Below, piece by piece: positions 47,158 to 63,053 of a stretch of 64,000 nt of DNA. The stretch spans positions 186,001-250,000 of the forward strand of contig JACDGV010000002.1 of assembly GCA_013821425.1 (NCBI GenBank), read 5' to 3'. How positions within the stretch are numbered: the first letter of the stretch is position 1; every line of letters starts with the position of its first letter. Origin of the DNA: Nitrosospira sp. (GTDB lineage: Bacteria > Pseudomonadota > Gammaproteobacteria > Burkholderiales > Nitrosomonadaceae). The translations under genes were made by a program, and so were the position numbers. The notes beneath the pieces are model-generated. The model saw only the letters and a program-made list of their open reading frames with translations, was not told the origin of the DNA and searched no databases.

Positions 47158-48429
47158 TTACAGCGGAACCGCGGAATCGACTGCGATCACGCCAAAGTCG
47201 GTCGGGACCTTCGCGCCGGTGCCATCGTCGATCGAGAAGCGGGTTTTCATGTGACCGCATACGACTTCGCCCATGACTTCCAGATTACTTTCGAAGTTGT
47301 ACCAGTGCTCCTTCCAGCCGTACTGCATGCCGCTGACTTTTGTCCTGCCGTAAGCGATACCCAGGGCCTGCGCGCCGAGCAACAGCCCGCGTTCCACTGC
47401 AAACCCGGTGGTCAACGATCCGTTGACCGCCTGATTGGTTTCGGTTGCGGTGGCGGCATTGGCCGAAGTGATCACCGTGGTGTTCTCGCCGGGAAGGAAG
47501 CGGACAGCACGCTCGTTCTTGATGACCAGGATCCCGTTCCACATGCCGACTTCACCGGCAAACAGCGGATGGCGTGTGTCCAGATAAGCAGCACGGTTTA
47601 TTGCGTTTTGCTGAAACGCTCGCAGCGAGCCTTCGGTCAACAGGATGGAGTACTGGTTGGGCGTGGCGAGGAATACCCACATTTTCGAGGTCTGCGCAGC
47701 CCGGTCTCCGGCCAGCTTCACCGATTGCAAGGGTTGATCCATGTCATCGATCCGCTTGCGCAGAAGATCCAGGTGCGTCAGTTTCAGCGCATCGGTGGAC
47801 ACGATGGAACCCAATTGCTGGCCGCCTTGGGCCAGGTTCGCACCATTCACCACGTAATGTCGGTTATAGGTCGGCGCCTTCACCGTATTCACCATGACCG
47901 ACGAGAAATTTGCCGAGCTTTGCAGCGGAATAACCCAGTCCGAACCCGTCTGCGAACCACGCGCACCGGCAAGATGCACCAGGGCGGTTTGCACATTCAA
48001 ACGAGGGAAATATCCGGACAGCTGCGCCAGGGCAATCTCGCGCAACTGGTGCTTGGTGCGTTGCTGCGACATGCTTCCGCCCGCATCGATCACCTTGCTG
48101 GACAAGTCGATCCTGATATCCATGGACGAGAACGAGAGAGCGCTGCCGCGGCCTTCGCGATTAACGTCACCCATCAACGGCTCGCCGCTGATCGTGTCGA
48201 CGAGATCAAGCGAGACACTGTCTCCCGCGTTCTTCATCAGGTTGTCTATGCGCACCAGCGGCATACCGGCCTGTGTCTGGCCCGCGATTTTCTGCATGGC
48301 GGCAGTGGGTTCGACCGGTCCGACCAGGTTTTCCATTGCGGACGCACCTTTGAGCGTATTGGCGAAAAGTGCGGCGCTGTAATGCTTTACGGCGAGTGAA
48401 CTGCCGCTTGCTACGTTGGTTTCAGCCAT
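47158..48429 (-). CDS. Major capsid protein (N4-gp56 family)
   Basis: 423 residues. Head shell protein: MAETNVASGSSLAVKHYSAA, FANTLKGASAMENLVGPVEP, AGMPLVRIDNLMKNAGDSVS, GDVNREGRGSALSFSSMDIR, TKHQLREIALAQLSGYFPRL, then WVFLATPNQYSILLTEGSLR and GAQALGIAYGR near the C-terminus. These match the N4-gp56 (DUF4043) capsid family. It follows the scaffold gene by 14 bp, as in podoviral head modules. Highest-confidence virion gene with terminase and portal. Confidence 0.92.
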   Translation of the reverse strand: MAETNVASGSSLAVKHYSAALFANTLKGASAMENLVGPVEPTAAMQKIAGQTQAGMPLVRIDNLMKNAGDSVSLDLVDTISGEPLMGDVNREGRGSALSFSSMDIRIDLSSKVIDAGGSMSQQRTKHQLREIALAQLSGYFPRLNVQTALVHLAGARGSQTGSDWVIPLQSSANFSSVMVNTVKAPTYNRHYVVNGANLAQGGQQLGSIVSTDALKLTHLDLLRKRIDDMDQPLQSVKLAGDRAAQTSKMWVFLATPNQYSILLTEGSLRAFQQNAINRAAYLDTRHPLFAGEVGMWNGILVIKNERAVRFLPGENTTVITSANAATATETNQAVNGSLTTGFAVERGLLLGAQALGIAYGRTKVSGMQYGWKEHWYNFESNLEVMGEVVCGHMKTRFSIDDGTGAKVPTDFGVIAVDSAVPL

Positions 48430-51747: not shown

Positions 51748-53754
51748 TTACCTTATATTGGCTTGTGGTTGCGATACCTCGGACGCTGCAATCTGCTCGG
51801 CCTTCAGCCGTCCATCCACATCGACCTTCTGCGCCTTGATGTCCAGATCGCGCTCCTTCAGGTCCAGCTCGCGTGATTTGTCCGTTAATCGCTCCTTCGC
51901 AGCCTGCAATTCCTGCTCCAGTCGCGCGATAGTCGCCTGTTGCTGCTCCAATTGCGCCTGGGATTGCTGCTGCATTTGTTGCATTCGCGGATTCTCGCCG
52001 GCGATGCCGCCAACTTGCCGCAACTGGTCCGCCAGTTCATGCCGGTTAGGCACATCGGACAGTTCGAGCATCGCGGGATATAGAACGGCCTGATAGGCGC
52101 CAGGCGCCGCGCGCATTACCTGGCTGAATGCCTGTAACTGCTGCGCCCTGAAGCTGGGCGTGGCCGGTATGTCTTCCAGCACCACCTTCACTTGTGCGGT
52201 TGCGATATCGTTCTCCACAGCTGGTCCTCCATCGGTCATCACCTCCCTGTTGAAGTAAATCGTCTTCCGCTTCATGCCATGATTAACCGTTATTGCGTGG
52301 GACTTGCCGGTCATATCCGCAATGGCAAAAGACAGAAGCTGCTGCCCGACCAGCCGGCGGGCGTAGCGGAAGTTATCGTTGGGCTCAGCCAGCACGGTGG
52401 AACCCTGCTCCACCAGGTTGCTTATGGCAATCCCGCTACTGGCCTCGGTGGATGCGCCCAACATGGCGCGGTAAACGCCGCCCACCTCTTCAATCCGTTT
52501 TTTGCGCTCCTGCACCAATTGGAAGAGTTGCGACGCAAGCGCATGTTCGCGGATAACTCTGAATCCGTTCGCATTGCGGCGATTTGCATTCAGGACTGTC
52601 ATGGAACGGAGACTGCTTATTGTCTGCGCCACTTCCTGATACGTATTCTGGCTGAGATCCAGTGCGTCGTTATCGACCTCCACCTTGACCGAGTTCAGCA
52701 CTTCGTAGAGCAAAATATCCAGATCGATGATCTGATCCTGGGGCCCCCGCATATCGCGGATCAAACCATAGGGAACGCGGCTCCTGTCCTTGCGGAAACA
52801 CCAGAAAGGCACGTACGGAAAATCGCCGTGCGGCAGTGGAGTGGGCACATCCATGAGCTTGTGAGGGCCCAGCCAGATCGATAGCCTGACTCTCGGCAAC
52901 AACGCCTTTTGCACCTGGACTAGCCCCTGCGCCACGGCGGAAGCGTGATAAGGGTTGTCATCGCGGTATTCGATCGCCTTGCCGTGGGCTAATACCAGCA
53001 CATGCCCCTCCTCGCAATACCGGTACCACATCTCCGAAAGCCGGACCATTCCGGCGTTCCGGTTCAGGTAATCTTCCTGGTTGCGCCCCCAGGCCTGTTC
53101 TATTTCATAGGCGCGCGCCATGCCGGTATCCGCACCCTCGTATACGTCCAGGCTGCTCCAGCCGCTCCAGCTGTTTTCGATAACTCCGCATTGCTCTGGG
53201 AACATTTTTACGGCCTGAACGCGATCCACCCATTTATCCCTGCGCAGGTAGCGCGCATCGGATAAATCCGGTTCTCTTGAAGTCCAGTCCCAATGGATAT
53301 CGTTGCGGTGCACTTCCCGGACCCGGTACGGATACTTTAGCGGATCGAACTCTCGCGATACTTCCACCCAGCCGATCCCCGCCCGGATCATGCTCGAATA
53401 GGCGTCCGACATGGCCCGGTCGGCGCGCGATTCGGTCTCGATTTCCTTGATCCTTGCGGACAATCCTTCCGCTATCTCGGCTTGGCTCGCATCATCCGAC
53501 GAAACCCTGTAATCCGTCCGGCTTCGTGCTTCCAGTCCCAGCACCGCGTTGATCGTCGGTTTGATGAGATTCGAATCCTGCGGAGGAATGCCCGCGTCTT
53601 TTAAACGCTGGTTAACCTCCATGGAAGTTTGCGCGCCATCGTAATAGTCGCAATCCGTATCTGAATCCAGGCGCCATCTGGGTTGTGCACCGATGTCGCG
53701 GCAGATCTTGTCGTAAGCCTCGACCGATATATCCTTTGTGATTGAAGCCGCCAT
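51748..53754 (-). CDS. Portal protein (P22-type)
   Basis: 668 residues from ATG 53754 (coupled TAATG to the terminase). Ring at the DNA vertex: DISVEAYDKICRDIGAQPRW, YYDGAQTSMEVNQRLKDAGI, NLIKPTINAVLGLEARSRTD, WVDRVQAVKMFPEQCGV and FPYVPFWCFRKDRSRVPYGL (with GLIRDMRGPQDQIIDLDILL). The C-terminal part is a long coiled coil rich in Gln (QQQSQAQLEQQQATIARLEQ). Layout and length fit P22-like portals. Confidence 0.92.
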   Translation of the reverse strand: MAASITKDISVEAYDKICRDIGAQPRWRLDSDTDCDYYDGAQTSMEVNQRLKDAGIPPQDSNLIKPTINAVLGLEARSRTDYRVSSDDASQAEIAEGLSARIKEIETESRADRAMSDAYSSMIRAGIGWVEVSREFDPLKYPYRVREVHRNDIHWDWTSREPDLSDARYLRRDKWVDRVQAVKMFPEQCGVIENSWSGWSSLDVYEGADTGMARAYEIEQAWGRNQEDYLNRNAGMVRLSEMWYRYCEEGHVLVLAHGKAIEYRDDNPYHASAVAQGLVQVQKALLPRVRLSIWLGPHKLMDVPTPLPHGDFPYVPFWCFRKDRSRVPYGLIRDMRGPQDQIIDLDILLYEVLNSVKVEVDNDALDLSQNTYQEVAQTISSLRSMTVLNANRRNANGFRVIREHALASQLFQLVQERKKRIEEVGGVYRAMLGASTEASSGIAISNLVEQGSTVLAEPNDNFRYARRLVGQQLLSFAIADMTGKSHAITVNHGMKRKTIYFNREVMTDGGPAVENDIATAQVKVVLEDIPATPSFRAQQLQAFSQVMRAAPGAYQAVLYPAMLELSDVPNRHELADQLRQVGGIAGENPRMQQMQQQSQAQLEQQQATIARLEQELQAAKERLTDKSRELDLKERDLDIKAQKVDVDGRLKAEQIAASEVSQPQANIR

Positions 53755-55007
53755 TATTTCCGCCACCCGCTCATGCGAACACCGCGGGCGCTGGCCAACG
53801 GGTTATCCTCTTCAATTGCCACGGCGAAATACCTGAATGCATCGGCAGCATGACTGTGGTAGTCATGCAATGGACGGGCACTAAAGTGTTTCATGTTCTG
53901 GTCAACCTCATAACGATAGTGCCTCAATGACTGCAATCCTTCCGCACACTTCTGTTCGTCGAAATAACACCGGTTAAACACCGTTCTCGCCGCATTGATG
54001 CCGTCGAAAATGGACAGATTTGGCACGACGCGCACCCTGCGGCCGGCGGTGATCATGATTTCCTCGACGCTGCGGCCCGTTGCGATGGTCCTGGCTTTGG
54101 CATCGTGCGGCAGCCAGTCCGTACCGTAGACATACCCCTTGTTTTGCAGTACCAAGATATAGTGCTGTATTGGCATCTGGTTATTGCTGTAGTAATCAAT
54201 CAATCTCAGCTCGCCCCCTACCGTCTGGGCAAACCAGATACTCGTGTTATCCGCCCAACCCAGGTCAAAGAATGTATGAACCGGTCTGGTCGCGTCATAC
54301 GGTACGCTCCGGATACGCCCCTCTTCTTGCGCCACTCCAAGTTCCCTTGCATAGATGGCGCCATCCAGCGCCACCCTGCAGTTGCCTTCCCATATGTTCA
54401 GATAACCATCCTGATCGCGTCCCTTGAGTTCATCCTTTTCCTGTAGCAATGTCTCCGGAAACCATGGATTGTCATTCCAGTTGATCTTGACCACTCTGGC
54501 ATCACGGGGGGGGGTGGCTACGAATCGCTGGTAGGTTTCATCCGACTCCAGTTCCGGATTGAACGTCAGCCATATCTCCGAGCCCTCCTTCCGAATCGTC
54601 GGAATGAGCGTTTCCCAGCTTGACTTGCTCACTGCCTGTGCTTCTTCGATCCAGACCCTGTCCACGCCCTCGAACGACTTGATCTTGGTGACGTTATTGC
54701 GCAGCCCGGCGAATATGAACTCCGAGCCGTTGGCGCCCCTTATGAGATTGTTCTGCACCTCGTAAAAAGAAAGCAGTCCGAGCGCCTCGATCTGGGCCTG
54801 CAACAAGTGGTGCACGGACTCCACGATAGAGGTCTGAAACTCTCTCGCGCACAGGATACGCAGTGGGGAGGCGGCCGCTTGAATCAATAGTGCCCTGGCG
54901 ACACCCCAGCTCTTTGCCCCGCCCCTTCCGCCGTATAAGACCTTGTACCGCGACGGTTCAAACAAAAACCTGACTTTCTCGGGAAATTCGGCTCTATGCG
55001 CAGCCAT
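53754..55007 (-). CDS. terL: Terminase large subunit
   Basis: DNA packaging motor, 417 residues from ATG 55007. Walker A GGRGGAKSWGVA near residue 30, Walker B VDRVWIEEAQAV near residue 115, coupling motif SEIWLTFNPELE. The nuclease domain has FFDLGWADNTSIWFAQ and a closing Asp in HDYHSHAADAFRYFAVA. Terminase_3/PBSX type. The frame to 55082 overlaps the small-subunit gene and is rejected in favour of the start that leaves a 34-bp gap. Confidence 0.95.
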   Translation of the reverse strand: MAAHRAEFPEKVRFLFEPSRYKVLYGGRGGAKSWGVARALLIQAAASPLRILCAREFQTSIVESVHHLLQAQIEALGLLSFYEVQNNLIRGANGSEFIFAGLRNNVTKIKSFEGVDRVWIEEAQAVSKSSWETLIPTIRKEGSEIWLTFNPELESDETYQRFVATPPRDARVVKINWNDNPWFPETLLQEKDELKGRDQDGYLNIWEGNCRVALDGAIYARELGVAQEEGRIRSVPYDATRPVHTFFDLGWADNTSIWFAQTVGGELRLIDYYSNNQMPIQHYILVLQNKGYVYGTDWLPHDAKARTIATGRSVEEIMITAGRRVRVVPNLSIFDGINAARTVFNRCYFDEQKCAEGLQSLRHYRYEVDQNMKHFSARPLHDYHSHAADAFRYFAVAIEEDNPLASARGVRMSGWRK

Positions 55008-55041
55008 GGCGCAATAACGGATAGATGAGAACGGCCATGTT

Positions 55042-55581
55042 TTATGGGTTCTTGTTATTGCCGGAATTGGCCGCGGCGACAAAGGTCACCTCGACTCCGT
55101 AGATAACCGGCTTCTTCGCTTCGGCCCCCTCATGGGCTGAAGAAGCCTTTTCGCCATATTTTTTCGGAGCGAGTCTCGCCGCGTACCACTTGCGCGCATC
55201 GATGCGTAGCTGGGCGCGGGCAATCACCTCGCGATTCACGACTTCTCGCCCCTTATCGTCGATATAGATATCCCTCGACCCGTCATCGGAAATTTCGATG
55301 ATCTCCTCGGCATAAGCATCAATGCACAGTTCCTTGGCACGCAGGTATTGCCGCATGAGTTCTTCATCGGCCGCCAGCCAGTTCCATAAAACCCTCTGGC
55401 TGATACCCGCTTCCACGCACATTGCACGGGCCGATTTACCTGTCGAAATACCGGCAAGAATAACCTCGAGCAATTCAGGGGTTTTTATTGTCGAAGCGCC
55501 TTTTTTCCTGCCGGACGGCGCTAAAGACCCGGAGTTCTTCCCCGCTTTCTCTATTGGCACTTCACCTTCGTTTTTGCTCAT
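55042..55581 (-). CDS. terS: Terminase small subunit
   Basis: 179-residue DNA-recognition subunit. Basic Ser/Lys N-terminus, HTH (ISTGKSARAMCVEAGISQRV then LWNWLAADEELMRQYLRAKE), oligomerisation segment with Ile/Asp-rich DIYIDDKGREVVNREVIARA and LRIDARKWYAARLAPKKYGE. Typical phage small terminase, directly before terL, with its 3' end 35 bp from the terL start. Confidence 0.9.
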   Translation of the reverse strand: MSKNEGEVPIEKAGKNSGSLAPSGRKKGASTIKTPELLEVILAGISTGKSARAMCVEAGISQRVLWNWLAADEELMRQYLRAKELCIDAYAEEIIEISDDGSRDIYIDDKGREVVNREVIARAQLRIDARKWYAARLAPKKYGEKASSAHEGAEAKKPVIYGVEVTFVAAANSGNNKNP

Positions 55582-58349: not shown

Positions 58350-59930
58350 ATGCCCAATGGAAACGAAAGCAACTCGAACGGACGAAGCTTCTTCCGGACC
58401 AAGAATCTTGAAACGGGACGGCACGAATCCTACAAGCAGGTTCTTGAGGGAGAGTATGTATTTCGTAACGACCCGGGCGGTAAACCGCCCTTTCAAACTT
58501 ACAATGAGGCAACTACGGAATTGCAGGGCATCATACGGACCTGCCTTGATGAAGGAAAGTCACTTCGCGCCCACGGCGCTCTATGGTCATTAAGCACCGT
58601 CCCAGTTACGGATGGCCGCCTCATAGATAACATCGCCCTGCGCCTCGCGTTCGAGGTGCCGGCAGAACTGACGAATCCTCTTTACAGCGGCGAGGCCGGG
58701 AAACTCCGTTTCGTCGAATGCGGCAACTCGGTTGCCGCATTGAACGACTATCTCTTTGCCAACGGTCTTTCACTCAAGGGTTGCGGCTCCAATAATGGTC
58801 AGACCATTGTCGGCGCGCTTTCCACGGGGACGCATGGGAGCGCTTACAGGTTTGGCGCCATGCAGGAAATGGTCGTCGGGCTGCACCTCATCTCTGGCCC
58901 GAACAGGCATGTCTATCTGGAGCGAGCATCCTATCCGGTCATGCGCGCAGACTTTGCAGAGAGCATAGGCGCGGAGTTTATACAGGACGATACGCTCTTC
59001 AACGCGGCGCTGGTGAGCCTGGGCTCCTTCGGCATCATTCATGGGGTCATGATCGAGACGCGCGAACTGTTCCTGCTTAACGCCGTCAGGTTCCGGCATC
59101 CGTACGATGCCACGCTCAAGGCGGCGATTGCCGCGTGCGATCCGACGCTCGTCCCTTTGCCAGTGGAAGCCCAGGATATTCCCAGGGACAAACCCTACCA
59201 CTTCGAGATATTCTTCAATCCCAACGAGGGCACGCCACCGGACGAGGCTATCGTGCTGATAATGTATGAATCCGCCTACGACCCCGCTCGCTACGTCCCG
59301 CCGGTCTGGAACACCGGCCAGGCCGGTCTCGGGGCTTCCGGGCTGGATGTAATGGGAACGCTGGTAGGTCGCATCCCCAGCCCCCTGAACAAGGTGGCCG
59401 TACCGTTCCTGAATAGTCAGGTAAACCAGGAATTCGCTCCCTACTTCAAGAAGGCGATCATCCGGGACCTCTTCCGCGGCGAGAAAACTCTGGGCAAAAC
59501 CCTAGCCTGCGGTGTGGGTATGCCTGTGGCACGCGCCGTCGAGGCAATGGAAATCGCGTTCAGCGTGTACGAGGCGTCGGACGCCGTCCTGCCGCTGATA
59601 CTGTCTCACCGTTTTGTCAAGGGTACAAAGGCGCTGCTCGGATTTACCCGCTTCGACGCCACGGTCGTCATGGAGATGGATGCGGTTAACACGTCCGAAA
59701 CCCGCGCGTTCTACAACAAAGTCTGGGAAGAGCTTGATGCGGCTGGTATTCCATTCACCCTTCACTGGGGAAAATACAACGCCTTCCTCACGCCCAACCG
59801 CGTGCGCAACCGCTACGGCGACACAGCCGTCGATCAATGGCTCGCCAGCCGCGAGGCTCTCATGGAAGGTGCGGAGGTGCGAAAAATTTTCAACAACGAC
59901 TTTACCTTCGCACTGGGATTGGCGAACTGA
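58350..59930 (+). CDS. FAD-linked oxidase (aldonolactone-oxidase-like)
   Basis: 526 residues. FAD-binding PCMH/VAO-type domain with SLRAHGALWSLSTVPVTDGR, CGNSVAALNDYLFANGLSLK, and the NGQTIVGALSTGTHGSAYRF loop (His is a usual covalent or phosphate-side FAD ligand); substrate part with LSHRFVKGTKALLGFTRFDA and a C-terminal HWGK (LHWGKYNAFLTPNRVRNRYG). The C-terminal HWGKxN motif is typical of D-arabinono-lactone/alditol oxidases. Substrate unknown. It follows the Bor-like gene by 13 bp. Confidence 0.88.
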   Translation: MPNGNESNSNGRSFFRTKNLETGRHESYKQVLEGEYVFRNDPGGKPPFQTYNEATTELQGIIRTCLDEGKSLRAHGALWSLSTVPVTDGRLIDNIALRLAFEVPAELTNPLYSGEAGKLRFVECGNSVAALNDYLFANGLSLKGCGSNNGQTIVGALSTGTHGSAYRFGAMQEMVVGLHLISGPNRHVYLERASYPVMRADFAESIGAEFIQDDTLFNAALVSLGSFGIIHGVMIETRELFLLNAVRFRHPYDATLKAAIAACDPTLVPLPVEAQDIPRDKPYHFEIFFNPNEGTPPDEAIVLIMYESAYDPARYVPPVWNTGQAGLGASGLDVMGTLVGRIPSPLNKVAVPFLNSQVNQEFAPYFKKAIIRDLFRGEKTLGKTLACGVGMPVARAVEAMEIAFSVYEASDAVLPLILSHRFVKGTKALLGFTRFDATVVMEMDAVNTSETRAFYNKVWEELDAAGIPFTLHWGKYNAFLTPNRVRNRYGDTAVDQWLASREALMEGAEVRKIFNNDFTFALGLAN

Positions 59931-60113: not shown

Positions 60114-62141
60114 ATGCGCCGCCAATTTTTGACGAGATCACCTGGAAAAATACAGCGGAGAGGCGCGGGCGGGAACTTGATGCCTTCAGCTTCCGCTGAA
60201 TCACGCCTTCGGGCTCTTCCTCCACCACCTATCCTCCAACTCCAGCGCATGTTGGGAAACCAGCTAGTGGCGCAGCTGGTTCAAGCTAAACGCCTTACCC
60301 CCGAGGGTAGGATAATTGGTCTTCAGCCCAAGCTGACCGTTGGCGCTGCCGATGATCAATACGAGCAGGAGGCCGACCTGGTGGCGCATCAGGTGATGAC
60401 CATGCCCGAGGGAGCGACGAATTCTAGTCAGCGAGGGATTCCAGACGAAAAGGAAAAAGAACAAACGATCCAAACGCAGTTGTTACCTCCCGCTTTAACT
60501 GCCTCTATCACTCCTTACATGCAGAGGCAAATGGAAGAAACCGAGGAGACGGAAGAAAAAAAGATGCCGCTTCAGGCAAAGCAGTTCGATAAAAGCGCGA
60601 GGCTGCGGCGACAGCCCGAGATGGAGAAAGAAGAACGCGAACCAATCCAGGCCAAACCGGCCCGATCGCTTGCCGGTTGCTTCGACGCTGGCAAGAATGT
60701 CGAGTCGCAGCTCAACCGAAGCAAAGGAGGCGGGGACCCTCTGCCGAATTCGGTGCGGGCATATATGGAACCACGATTTGGAATGGATTTCAGTCATGTG
60801 CGGGTCCATACCGGTAGTGAGGCTGTTCAGTTGAATCGGGATGTGGGGGCCAAAGCGTTCACCCATGGCTCCGATATTTACTACGGCGCAAACCATAGTC
60901 CTGGTAATCTGGAACTGACCGCGCATGAGGTGACCCATGTCGTTCAGCAAACGGGCAGCGCGTCATTGCAACCAAAACGGCTAGATAAGGTATTGCCAGC
61001 TGTAGAAGGTCACCCTGCCCCTCTCATACAACGCGACAAAATTCCTCATGGGTCACTCACATGGGATGACTTTAAAGGCAAGGTGCCTAAAAAAGCGAAG
61101 CATGATGCGGCAACCTGGTCCGATTTTGAAGACCCTGAACTCAAAACGCTGATACCCGATAATGCCCCCGTGGATACTGTCGAACCCTGCACGGTAAAAG
61201 GCAAGGATTCCACCCGGTTTACTGTCGATATCGCTATCGACTCCACCAAAATCGGGGTCAAGTCCTTTATGGATCAAGATAAATCATGGCATAAATCCTG
61301 GACCACCGATGAAGCCGCCAGGCGCACGAAGTGCGAGAAGGAGTGGACGCCCAAATGCAAAAAAGCCTTTGATAAGCAGATTGCTAAAATCAGGAAGACA
61401 GTCTCCAAAAGCAAGGCCACCTGCGAAAAACAATTCGATAAAATCAAAAAGGAAGCGGCAAAGCAATGCAAACCCTCTGAAACTGAGTGCAAGGCAGCGT
61501 TCAAAAGAGGCGATACCAGCTTTACCATTGAGATTGGCGATTCCGAAATCGAAGCGAATACCGCGAAGGAATGCACAAACGTATTATTGCCCGACTGCAT
61601 CGCAGCATCCATGAAGGGTGCGGAGGTTTCAGAAACCGTCGAGGGTGAGTCGGTCACGGCCACGTCCAAAGCGGAATGCAAAACGGCGTTGACTCCCGGC
61701 CTGGAAAAGCTGTTGAAAGATCAGATCACGTGGGAGGCGAGTATGGGCGGAGCATCTGTTACGGTGAAAAAACTTGAGGATTGCAGTACGACATTTGTCG
61801 ATAACTGCGCGACTGAGCTTCTGCAAGCGGGCAGCGACGAGCTGTTGAAGCACGAACAGACGCATTTTGATCTGACCCAGGCCATGGCCGAAAAGGCCCA
61901 AAATGATCTCAGGGATCTTGTTGGCACCTTCCCCACAGAAGTCGATGCATGCGGTGAAGCAGCTGCGAAAGCCAAGGCTAAAACGATCCTGGCGAGCGAA
62001 CTGGCAAAGATGAAGAAAAGCTATGCTGCCAACAAAAAATCGATGAGCAAGAAACAGGCACAATACGACAAGGAAACGAAGCACGGTCTCGTTGAAAAAA
62101 AACAAACGGCGTGGGAAGAAAAAATTAGCGAAGGTTTTTAA
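60114..62141 (+). CDS. DUF4157 protein with a second, DUF922-like metalloprotease motif
   Basis: 675 residues. N-terminus with the DUF4157-associated YEQEADLVAHQVM (about 83-95), Glu/Gln/Lys-rich linker, then the DUF4157 core PRFGMDFSHVRVHTGSEAVQ...AHEVTHVVQQ with HEVTH at 271-275. Residues from about 314 (SLTWDDFKGKVP) to HEQTHFDLTQAMAEKA (HEQTH at 580-584) resemble DUF922 secreted Zn-protease, split by a Lys/Cys-rich insert. DUF4157 proteins are often cargo or toxins of contractile injection systems; no such system lies in the window. GAGG lies 6 nt upstream of ATG 60114. Confidence 0.85.
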   Translation: MRRQFLTRSPGKIQRRGAGGNLMPSASAESRLRALPPPPILQLQRMLGNQLVAQLVQAKRLTPEGRIIGLQPKLTVGAADDQYEQEADLVAHQVMTMPEGATNSSQRGIPDEKEKEQTIQTQLLPPALTASITPYMQRQMEETEETEEKKMPLQAKQFDKSARLRRQPEMEKEEREPIQAKPARSLAGCFDAGKNVESQLNRSKGGGDPLPNSVRAYMEPRFGMDFSHVRVHTGSEAVQLNRDVGAKAFTHGSDIYYGANHSPGNLELTAHEVTHVVQQTGSASLQPKRLDKVLPAVEGHPAPLIQRDKIPHGSLTWDDFKGKVPKKAKHDAATWSDFEDPELKTLIPDNAPVDTVEPCTVKGKDSTRFTVDIAIDSTKIGVKSFMDQDKSWHKSWTTDEAARRTKCEKEWTPKCKKAFDKQIAKIRKTVSKSKATCEKQFDKIKKEAAKQCKPSETECKAAFKRGDTSFTIEIGDSEIEANTAKECTNVLLPDCIAASMKGAEVSETVEGESVTATSKAECKTALTPGLEKLLKDQITWEASMGGASVTVKKLEDCSTTFVDNCATELLQAGSDELLKHEQTHFDLTQAMAEKAQNDLRDLVGTFPTEVDACGEAAAKAKAKTILASELAKMKKSYAANKKSMSKKQAQYDKETKHGLVEKKQTAWEEKISEGF

Positions 62142-62208: not shown

Positions 62209-62721
62209 TCAGCAGCAAACTCCCGCTTCCATCCTCTGTCCCTCGCGCCGTTTTTCTTTCACCGGTCCGCAGCATGCAGTTTCTTTTCGGCTCTCGGTTC
62301 CGGCTGGGGCGCCGCTGGTCGCGCTAACCGTCATTGTGCCGTGGTTGCTGCCAAAAACGGGAATATTGTCCAGCGTGTGGAATGTTTCCCACGCGATGCC
62401 CTGGGGATCTGTTGCCCAGTACTTGTCGGACCTGGCATAACAGCAGGTCGCGCCCTCCTCAACCGTGTACCCGGCTTGCAACGCCTCAAGCCGTGCATGC
62501 ATCTCTGCCAGCTCATCGGAAGACTCCACCTGTACGCCCAGATGATTCAGGCCAGGCTTCTGCCCGCGTTGCGAAACAGCAAAGTTCATGCGCGGATCAT
62601 CCAGCATCCATTTCGCGTAATCTGGCTTGGTGATGGATGGTTCTGCGCCGAAAAGCGTGGAGTAAAACTGGATACTATCGGCTAAATTTCCTACGGCGAC
62701 ATGTACGTGCATACGTTTCAT
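62209..62721 (-). CDS. arsI: ArsI-type C-As lyase / CadI-like VOC protein
   Basis: 170 residues, vicinal-oxygen-chelate fold. ArsI removes the methyl group from trivalent organoarsenicals. HVHVAVGNLADSIQFYSTLF, metal-side residues in NHLGVQV and GIAWETFHTL, and the diagnostic Cys pair in ATCCYARSDKYW (Cys93-Cys94). The C-terminal tail has ACCGP and GVCC. It overlaps arsR by 4 bp, the usual arsRI pair. Confidence 0.9.
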   Translation of the reverse strand: MKRMHVHVAVGNLADSIQFYSTLFGAEPSITKPDYAKWMLDDPRMNFAVSQRGQKPGLNHLGVQVESSDELAEMHARLEALQAGYTVEEGATCCYARSDKYWATDPQGIAWETFHTLDNIPVFGSNHGTMTVSATSGAPAGTESRKETACCGPVKEKRREGQRMEAGVCC

Positions 62722-63053
62722 GATGTCCTCTCTTCAGTTGTGCAACGCTCAGGATCAGTGGCGCAAGAGTCGCCACTGCAGCAGTTTTCAGTCAAAAAGG
62801 AAAGCAATTCGTTCATGGTGGCGAAATTGGCGGTATAAAAGATGAACCGGCCTTCGGGACGCGCACTTACCAATCCCGCATGGCTCAGTTCCTTCAGATG
62901 GAAGGAAAGAGATGAAGGAGAGATTCCAGTGCGTTCTCCGATTTTCCCGGCGGAGAGACCGGAGCGCCCTGCCTCAACCAGGGCTCGATAAACCGCAAGC
63001 CGGGATTCCTGGGCAAGAGCGGACAGGGCCACTATAACATGTTTTGCTTTCAT
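62718..63053 (-). CDS. arsR: ArsR-family metalloregulator
   Basis: 111 residues. Winged helix: ALSALAQESRLAVYRALVEA, GERTGISPSSLSFHLKELSH, AGLVSARPEGRFIFYTANFA. The C-terminal ENCCSGDSCATDPERC is a probable As(III) site, different from the classic ELCVCD position. It represses its own operon until arsenite binds. First gene of arsRI. Its ATG lies only 6 nt from the -10 element. Confidence 0.92.
   Translation of the reverse strand: MKAKHVIVALSALAQESRLAVYRALVEAGRSGLSAGKIGERTGISPSSLSFHLKELSHAGLVSARPEGRFIFYTANFATMNELLSFLTENCCSGDSCATDPERCTTEERTS

What the first reader, a model, noticed from the sequence alone, without database searches (positions are those of the whole stretch)
60114..62141. One protein with two HExxH metalloprotease modules (DUF4157 and DUF922-like)
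HEVTH (271-275) lies in a clear DUF4157 core and HEQTHFDL (580-587) in a DUF922-like context beginning SLTWDDFKGK. The DUF922-like part is interrupted by a Lys/Cys-rich insert of about 150 residues. DUF4157 proteins are frequent cargo of extracellular contractile injection systems; a fusion to a second protease would be a new cargo architecture. The two motifs and the insert are seen in the sequence; the cargo role is inference.
Basis: partly seen in the sequence, partly recalled or inferred. Interest (0 to 1): 0.7.

Follow-up and report, generated by a model that had tools for sequence, protein, structure and literature searches.

The report
Injection-system cargo with second protease domain
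An ammonia-oxidising bacterium carries a gene that looks like cargo for a phage-tail-like injection device, made of the usual cargo front half plus a likely protein-cutting domain split by a cysteine-rich insert; cargo with two such motifs is already known, but we found no description of this protease family in that role.

Summary
Window 60114-62141 encodes one intact 675-aa protein with HEVTH (271-275) in a clear DUF4157 core (now Pfam eCIS_core, 93 bits) and HEQTHFDL (580-587) in a DUF922-like domain. Pfam's DUF922 score is below cut-off (21.8 vs 27 bits); an insert of about 176 residues splits the domain. Both halves match a profile of 35 compact DUF922 proteins, which hits none of 300 shuffles or 11 other DUF4157 proteins. 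AlphaFold2 (pLDDT 89) models the insert as a long helix plus three hairpin-helix units; 12 cysteines in and around it are all kept in two orthologues.

The genome (Nitrosospira group) has an eCIS cluster on another contig, which also holds two more DUF4157 genes and a broken copy of the DUF922 module. In a relative, a DUF4157-DUF922 fusion lies in an eCIS cluster. Among 14 such proteins N-halves are related in 91 of 91 pairs, C-halves in 14 of 91.

Best reading: eCIS cargo with a C-terminal zinc-protease effector. Two-HExxH cargo is not new (Cgo1, EAT4); DUF922 in this role and its cysteine-rich insert appear to be. Loading, zincin fold and protease activity are inferred.

The parts
60114..62141 (+). 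whole gene, 675 aa, DUF4157-DUF922 fusion
   Evidence: single intact ORF; against the NpAV orthologue pS 0.77 (near saturation) but pN 0.20 over 643 codons, so under protein-level constraint
60114..60413 (+). N-terminal leader region (about residues 1-100), LQR.LGN...QPKL.VGAADDQYEQEAD, shared by DUF4157 proteins of the group
   Evidence: N-terminal halves related in 91 of 91 pairs of 14 proteins; alignment
60414..60728 (+). charged linker (about residues 101-205)
   Evidence: read from the sequence; of variable length and poorly aligned between orthologues
60738..60956 (+). eCIS_core (DUF4157, PF13699), residues 209-281
   Evidence: 93.1 bits, cut-off 22
60924..60938 (+). first zinc-protease-type motif HEVTH (271-275)
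61044..61298 (+). N-terminal half of the DUF922-like domain (about 311-395), with SLTWDDFKGK and ...KSW
   Evidence: hhalign to 35 compact DUF922 proteins, probability 95.7, E 1e-8; near-invariant T316 W317 D319 F320 S391
61299..61826 (+). insert (about 396-571), Lys- and Cys-rich: long helix plus three beta-hairpin/helix units
   Evidence: absent from the 17 compact relatives in A1; AlphaFold2 elements H100-164, E170-181/H184-200, E205-216/H220-235, E240-251/H254-303 in model numbering, add 300; cysteines
61512..61616 (+). unit 1 of the insert (467-501)
   Evidence: AlphaFold2 borders; weak sequence similarity, unit 1 to unit 2 z 3.2, 9 of 1000 shuffles as good
61617..61721 (+). unit 2 of the insert (502-536)
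61722..61829 (+). unit 3 of the insert (537-572), whose helix runs on into the second motif
   Evidence: 20 of 1000 (to unit 1) and 50 of 1000 (to unit 2) shuffles as good, so weak by sequence
61827..62132 (+). C-terminal half of the DUF922-like domain (about 572-673)
   Evidence: Pfam DUF922 21.8 bits for 574-658, below cut-off 27; hhalign probability 98.4, E 7.9e-15
61851..61874 (+). second motif HEQTHFDL (580-587)
   Evidence: H, E, Q, H, F invariant in 22 of 22 sequences of A1
62064..62078 (+). YDKET (651-655); D652 is the only acidic residue downstream of the motif that is invariant in A1, so a candidate third zinc ligand
   Evidence: invariant D352 and T355 (model numbering) in A1; the ligand role is inference

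Best explanation
The gene encodes a cargo protein of an extracellular contractile injection system (eCIS). Its N-terminal leader and DUF4157 (eCIS_core) half are the shared cargo module, probably for recognition, loading or keeping the cargo unfolded; its C-terminal half is the effector, a zinc metalloprotease of the DUF922 type interrupted by a cysteine-rich insert. Likely path: the protein is made in the cytosol, packed into the eCIS tube by its leader, fired with the tube, and folds after delivery in an oxidising place (target periplasm or outside), where the cysteines pair and HEQTH, perhaps with D652, binds zinc and cuts a target protein. SHOWN by computation: the gene is intact and constrained; both domains are present; the same genome has an eCIS cluster; a relative has a DUF4157-DUF922 fusion in an eCIS cluster; the N-half is shared and the C-half swapped among sibling proteins. 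INFERRED: loading, delivery, disulphides, zinc binding, proteolysis, the target.
For: Domains. A profile of 35 compact proteins, each of which matches Pfam DUF922 at E 0.01 or better, hits the four proteins with this C-half (E 1.6e-22 for the window protein in a set of 316 sequences) and none of 300 shuffles, the reversed protein, or the 11 other DUF4157 proteins in the set. The 35 were found with this protein as query (33) or by PF06037 (2), so they are not independent. eCIS in the genome: two tail-tube and two sheath genes above cut-off on contig C48, Pvc16_N and Baseplate_J, matches to an inner-tube adaptor, a VgrG-related protein and TssE (the adaptor, VgrG and TssE models below their own cut-offs); two more DUF4157 genes on C48. 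Co-occurrence: of 23 genomes of the genus searched, the 10 with DUF4157 are the same 10 with an above-cut-off tube gene, and the other 13 have neither. In the family sample of 125, 46 of the 49 genomes with DUF4157 have a tube match, against 10 of the 76 without. In G042 contig C19 a 539-aa DUF4157-DUF922 fusion is the third of four consecutive DUF4157 genes, about 8 kb past a tube gene (profile) next to a sheath-like gene (read). Modular cargo: N-halves related in 91 of 91 pairs, C-halves in 14 of 91 (14 of the 18 DUF4157 proteins seen were used). Cysteines: 12 between 359 and 613, all 12 matched in register in NpAV and in 56-18; the G042 protein has 10 there. Zincin prediction for DUF922 in print: PMC3650047 (passages). 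DUF4157 proteins as eCIS cargo or toxins in print: PMC8894135, PMC8213781, PMC11297309 (passages).
Against: The window gene is not in or next to the eCIS cluster: no tube or sheath match was found on its contig C35, and its neighbour in two orthologues is an FAD-linked oxidase gene that also occurs in genomes without DUF4157. DUF922 is below the Pfam cut-off in the window protein, in 56-18 (16.7 bits) and in G042 (17.4 bits), and gives no row at E 0.01 for NpAV. In 56-18 the orthologue lacks the eCIS_core but has leader and DUF922 half, so the core may not be needed, or that copy may no longer be cargo. For Cgo1, growth inhibition did not depend on either HExxH motif (PMC8894135), so a second motif does not prove a protease effector. 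The AlphaFold2 model has no significant PDB match. The tube family PF06841 is not exclusive to eCIS (recalled). No immunity gene is apparent beside the gene in the ORF list.
Confidence: 0.6

Rival explanations
1. Cargo, but the second module does not act as a protease in the target: as reported for Cgo1, its effect does not need the zinc motifs, and the C-half acts by binding, by its helical insert, or by filling the tube.
For: Cgo1 inhibited E. coli growth with the metalloprotease motifs mutated (PMC8894135). The insert is larger than the DUF922 core's N-half and dominates the model.
Against: H, E, Q, H and F of the second motif are invariant in 22 of 22 sequences, and protein-level constraint is strong.
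Confidence: 0.2
2. Not (any more) cargo: an orphan gene away from the eCIS cluster that serves the producing cell, for example as a processing or envelope protease.
For: Separate contig; same place next to an FAD oxidase gene in three genomes; eCIS_core missing in 56-18.
Against: The leader is kept in 56-18; the three genomes with it (G000, G103, G104) all have above-cut-off tube genes, while 13 of 23 genus members have none; no Sec signal peptide is apparent at the N-terminus (read from the sequence, no predictor run).
Confidence: 0.13
3. The two protease-type modules act on each other or on sibling cargo: the DUF4157 core cuts the linker to release the DUF922 half, or the reverse.
For: Release or maturation are among the roles hypothesised for DUF4157 (PMC8213781, passages); a long charged linker lies between leader and core.
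Against: Nothing here tests it; the 56-18 protein has no core; Cgo1's growth inhibition did not depend on its DUF4157 motif.
Confidence: 0.07

Closest known systems
Cgo1 (ALPR1_12695) of the Algoriphagus machipongonensis AlgoCIS (PMC8894135; passages read)
   Same: Predicted disordered N-terminus, central DUF4157 with HExxH, C-terminal domain with a second HExxH predicted to be a metalloprotease; eCIS cargo.
   Different: Its cargo role is shown by experiment; encoded in the AlgoCIS cluster; I had no sequence of it to compare, so whether its C-terminal domain is DUF922-like is not known to me.
EAT4 of Mucilaginibacter sp. OK098 (PMC8213781 Table 1; passage read)
   Same: DUF4157 plus a predicted zinc protease in one eCIS-associated toxin.
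   Different: Predicted peptidyl-Lys metalloendopeptidase, not DUF922; reported antibacterial, did not kill yeast.
Compact DUF922 proteins, mostly of Bacteroidota, two of Acidobacteriota (33 loci and 2, aligned in A2)
   Same: LTWDDFKG start, HEQxHFD motif, YDxET and W near the C-terminus; 35 of 35 match Pfam DUF922.
   Different: No DUF4157 half: 0 of the 35 open frames from L019-L055 listed hit the DUF4157 query; no insert. Some begin with what reads like a secretion signal (no predictor run).
Other DUF4157 proteins of Nitrosospira and Nitrosovibrio (11 compared)
   Same: Same leader and eCIS_core module.
   Different: C-terminal halves unrelated to the DUF922 half (no C-half pair with a fusion protein except among the fusions); 2 of 5 scanned carry a peptidoglycan-binding domain.

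Membership tests
DUF4157 / eCIS_core (PF13699) | profile score above curated cut-off | tested here: met
   93.1 bits against 22
DUF4157 / eCIS_core (PF13699) | HExxH motif in the core | tested here: met
   HEVTH 271-275
DUF922 (PF06037) | whole-protein score above curated cut-off | tested here: not met
   21.8 bits against 27; 24.5 in the genome search. I therefore call it a DUF922-like, insert-split homologue, not a Pfam-threshold member.
DUF922 (PF06037) | homology of both halves to accepted DUF922 proteins | tested here: met
   hhalign E 7.9e-15 and 1e-8; separate profile hits at 312-450 and 556-673
DUF922 (PF06037) | conserved residues of the family (LTWDDF, HEQxHF, YDxET, W) | tested here: met
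   A1, 22 sequences
DUF922 (PF06037) | one uninterrupted domain of about 150 residues | tested here: not met
   split by about 176 residues
zincin metalloprotease | zincin fold around the HExxH helix | tested here: inconclusive
   HEQTH lies in a helix preceded by strands, but no PDB match at E 0.001; second model not obtained
zincin metalloprotease | zinc binding and proteolysis | not testable with these tools
   needs protein
eCIS cargo / eCIS-associated toxin | eCIS cluster in the same genome | tested here: met
eCIS cargo / eCIS-associated toxin | encoded in or near the eCIS cluster | tested here: not met
   different contig for the window gene; met for the G042 relative
eCIS cargo / eCIS-associated toxin | found inside particles; toxic to a target | not testable with these tools
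   needs particles and assays
T6SS effector | a T6SS in the genome | not tested
   only tube and sheath families PF06841 and PF04984 were searched; the TssE match lies in the eCIS cluster and is below its cut-off

The most novel reading that the evidence does not exclude
The cysteine-rich insert is a redox safety catch: with its cysteines reduced in the producer the split DUF922 core cannot close, so the cargo is harmless and threadable through the tube and needs no immunity gene; after delivery to an oxidising compartment disulphides fold the helix-and-hairpin insert and bring LTWDDF and HEQTH together into a working protease.
Probability: 0.12. Interest if true: 0.7.

Novelty: new variant of a known kind. 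Interest (0 to 1): 0.42.

Why it matters
What DUF4157 does is called an open question in the passages read, and most predicted DUF4157 toxins there have no second annotated domain (983 of 1130). This family offers a natural test set: the same C-terminal module with the core (window, NpAV), without the core but with the leader (56-18), and as a fusion in an eCIS cluster (G042). It would also give a role to DUF922, a predicted protease family named in only two papers of the library searched, neither about eCIS by its listing, and would describe injection-system cargo in ammonia oxidisers, on which two searches found no paper (listings only).

Tried and rejected
Wider distribution: DUF922 matched in 201 of 390 genomes of the order of G125 (the match list was cut, so not all matches were seen) and in 19 of 369 genomes of the own class, the own genome included. 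Among the rows shown, three open frames exceed 450 aa (G388, G310, G512); each was opened and has a single HExxH, that of DUF922, and G388's length comes from an open frame running upstream of a signal-like start (reading). In the class the 18 other genomes had open frames of 64-246 aa. A profile of the insert-bearing form (A3) matched only the own genome among 399 drawn from the order; G042, G103 and G104, which are in the profile, were evidently not in that draw. No match in plasmids or phages; in viral contigs 119 stretches matched a pattern and none was confirmed. The full-length protein matches 76 plasmid records; the 20 shown cover 15-40% of it, at the N-half. Six genomes behind DUF922 loci were searched for DUF4157: 4 of 6 have it; whether any is fused to DUF922 was not looked at beyond the loci in hand. 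The G047 match (37%, E 1.6e-4) lies among short frames with no clear cargo gene and was dropped.

The FAD oxidase upstream was considered as a partner and rejected: it occurs at 68% identity or more in 16 of 125 genomes (own included), among them 7 genus members without DUF4157. The promoter and terminator scan was no better than shuffles. PDB sequence searches gave no credible relative. dN/dS could not be computed in 5 of 7 comparisons because synonymous sites are saturated.

Full report
Observation. The ORF 60114-62141 (+) is intact, 675 aa. It has two HExxH motifs, HEVTH 271-275 and HEQTHFDL 580-587; shuffles of the same residues give two or more in 5 of 20,000. Pfam finds eCIS_core (formerly DUF4157) at 209-281 with 93.1 bits, and DUF922 at 574-658 with 21.8 bits, below its cut-off of 27. 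NCBIfam gives one weak, implausible row (E 0.036).

Is the second module DUF922? A first alignment with 21 chosen relatives (A1: four with the insert, one of them the fragment on C48, and 17 compact) shows L578, H580, E581, Q582, H584, F585, D652, T655 and W667 invariant in 22 of 22, and T316, W317, D319, F320, S391 nearly so. The compact relatives jump from the KSW region to LLKHEQ, so about residues 396-571 are an insert. A second alignment of 35 compact proteins (A2: 33 of the 37 loci L019-L055, plus two), 35 of 35 of which match Pfam DUF922, matches the C-half (hhalign E 7.9e-15) and, tested apart, the N-half (E 1e-8). A profile built from A2 hits the window protein at 312-450 and 556-673 (E 1.6e-22), the NpAV, 56-18 and G042 proteins, and nothing else in a set of 316 sequences with 11 other DUF4157 proteins, the reversed protein and 300 shuffles. 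The A2 proteins were found through this protein or through PF06037, so this is confirmation, not an independent discovery. I call the module DUF922-like and insert-split, since the Pfam cut-off is not met.

The insert. AlphaFold2 on A1 gave mean pLDDT 89.3, pTM 0.63. The insert is a helix (about 400-464) followed by three beta-hairpin/helix units, the last of whose helices runs on into HEQTH. Sequence similarity among the units is weak (z 3.2, 2.6, 2.0; 9, 20 and 50 of 1000 shuffles as good), so the repeat is mainly a structural reading. Twelve cysteines lie between 359 and 613; all twelve are matched in register in NpAV and in 56-18, and the more distant G042 protein has ten in the same region. 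Even numbers and C-x6/7-C spacings suggest disulphides; this is inference. Foldseek against the PDB gave no match at E 0.001; the long insert may swamp the search. DUF922 was predicted to be zincin-like in 2013 (PMC3650047, passages read), and DUF4157 is listed in the Peptidase MA clan (PMC11467057, passages read).

Genome setting. The window is C35:186001-250000 of a 3.14-Mb genome. Nitrosospira sp. NpAV and 56-18 (G103, G104) are in its genus by the tool's grouping; that Nitrosospira are ammonia oxidisers is recalled. Contig C48 holds an eCIS cluster: two tube genes above cut-off (two further matches on C23 and C57 are below it), two sheath genes, Pvc16_N and Baseplate_J, a baseplate assembly protein above its cut-off and sub-cut-off matches to an inner-tube adaptor, a VgrG-related protein and TssE. 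Two further DUF4157 genes lie on C48 (1637 and 662 aa). Directly upstream of the 662-aa gene is a copy of the DUF922 module, 64% identical, interrupted by two stops; no leader or core belonging to it was found in C48:1-20000. It lies about 25 kb from the nearest structural genes. The window gene itself is on another contig: it lies behind an FAD-linked oxidase gene (PF01565) and before genes on the other strand. The same order, oxidase then cargo, is found in NpAV and 56-18. The oxidase occurs at 77% identity or more in 15 genomes of the genus sample, the own one included, and at 68% in one genome of another genus, also where DUF4157 is absent, so it marks the place rather than the system.

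Relatives. With the C-half as query, 5 of 125 genomes of the family match: the own genome, NpAV (68%), 56-18 (61%), G042 (about 32%) and a weak G047 match that I dropped. NpAV has a full fusion (676 aa). The 56-18 protein (547 aa) has leader and DUF922 half but no eCIS_core. G042 has a 539-aa fusion, the third of four consecutive DUF4157 genes on a contig with a tube gene and genes that read like sheath and later eCIS genes on either side (by reading). Protein-level constraint is strong: for the whole gene against NpAV pS 0.77, pN 0.20 over 643 codons.

Association. In the genus, 10 of 23 genomes have DUF4157 and the same 10 have an above-cut-off tube gene; of the other 13 only G108 has a tube match, below cut-off. 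In the family sample, 46 of 49 genomes with DUF4157 have a tube match, against 10 of 76 without it (counted by hand from the rows; G108 is among the 10). Among 14 DUF4157 proteins compared (of 18 seen; the one of L017 and the three other G042 ones were left out), N-terminal halves are related in 91 of 91 pairs, C-terminal halves in 14 of 91: a shared delivery module with swapped effectors. Two of five siblings scanned carry a peptidoglycan-binding domain, a hint, not more, that targets may be bacteria.

Mechanism. Best reading: leader and core load the protein into the eCIS tube; the DUF922-like half is the effector, acting after delivery, probably outside a reducing cytosol given its cysteines and given that several compact DUF922 proteins look secreted (read by eye, no predictor). 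D652 is a candidate third zinc ligand. Loading, delivery, activity and target are all inferred. Against it: the gene is away from the cluster, DUF922 is below cut-off, no immunity gene is apparent, and Cgo1's effect on E. coli did not need its HExxH motifs (PMC8894135).

Known or new. Two-HExxH eCIS cargo is known: Cgo1 and, with a different predicted protease, EAT4. Of predicted eCIS toxins, 1130 (51.5%) carry DUF4157, 983 of them without another annotated domain (PMC11297309, passages). The search for DUF922 found two papers, neither about eCIS by its listing; the searches for Nitrosospira with contractile injection (0 papers) and for eCIS with ammonia-oxidizing (2 papers, neither on this by title) found nothing on this case. 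These cover only the open-licence library. DUF922 as an eCIS effector and its cysteine-rich insert therefore look new; the architecture class does not. In the genomes sampled the DUF4157-DUF922 fusion was seen only in this family, with the limits given under Tried and rejected.

Noticed in passing
window 35000-56000: Block of tailed-phage-like genes on the - strand (terminase-like 53754-55082, portal-like 51748-53766, capsid-like 47158-48429), named from reading the ORF list without a profile search.
   Followed up: no
window 58350-59930: FAD-linked oxidase-like gene (PF01565) that keeps its place next to the cargo gene in NpAV and 56-18 but also occurs without it.
   Followed up: partly
L006:16134-17252 (-): Broken DUF922 module without leader or core, directly upstream of a 662-aa DUF4157 gene on the contig that holds the eCIS cluster.
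   Followed up: partly
L006:13546-13686 (-): Short stretch resembling the cargo leader (residues 23-73, 47%), just downstream of the 662-aa DUF4157 gene.
   Followed up: no
L012:9899-11542 (+): 56-18 orthologue with leader and DUF922 half but no eCIS_core: a natural core-less variant.
   Followed up: partly
L018:15510-17483 (+): Nitrosovibrio tenuis DUF4157 protein with PG_binding_1 and another second HExxH (HERVH, 544) that Pfam does not assign.
   Followed up: no
L018:4809-17483: Four DUF4157 genes on the same strand within 13 kb in Nitrosovibrio tenuis.
   Followed up: no
window 62209-63053: Two - strand genes read as a glyoxalase-like (ArsI-type) protein and an ArsR-type regulator, named from reading only.
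   Followed up: no
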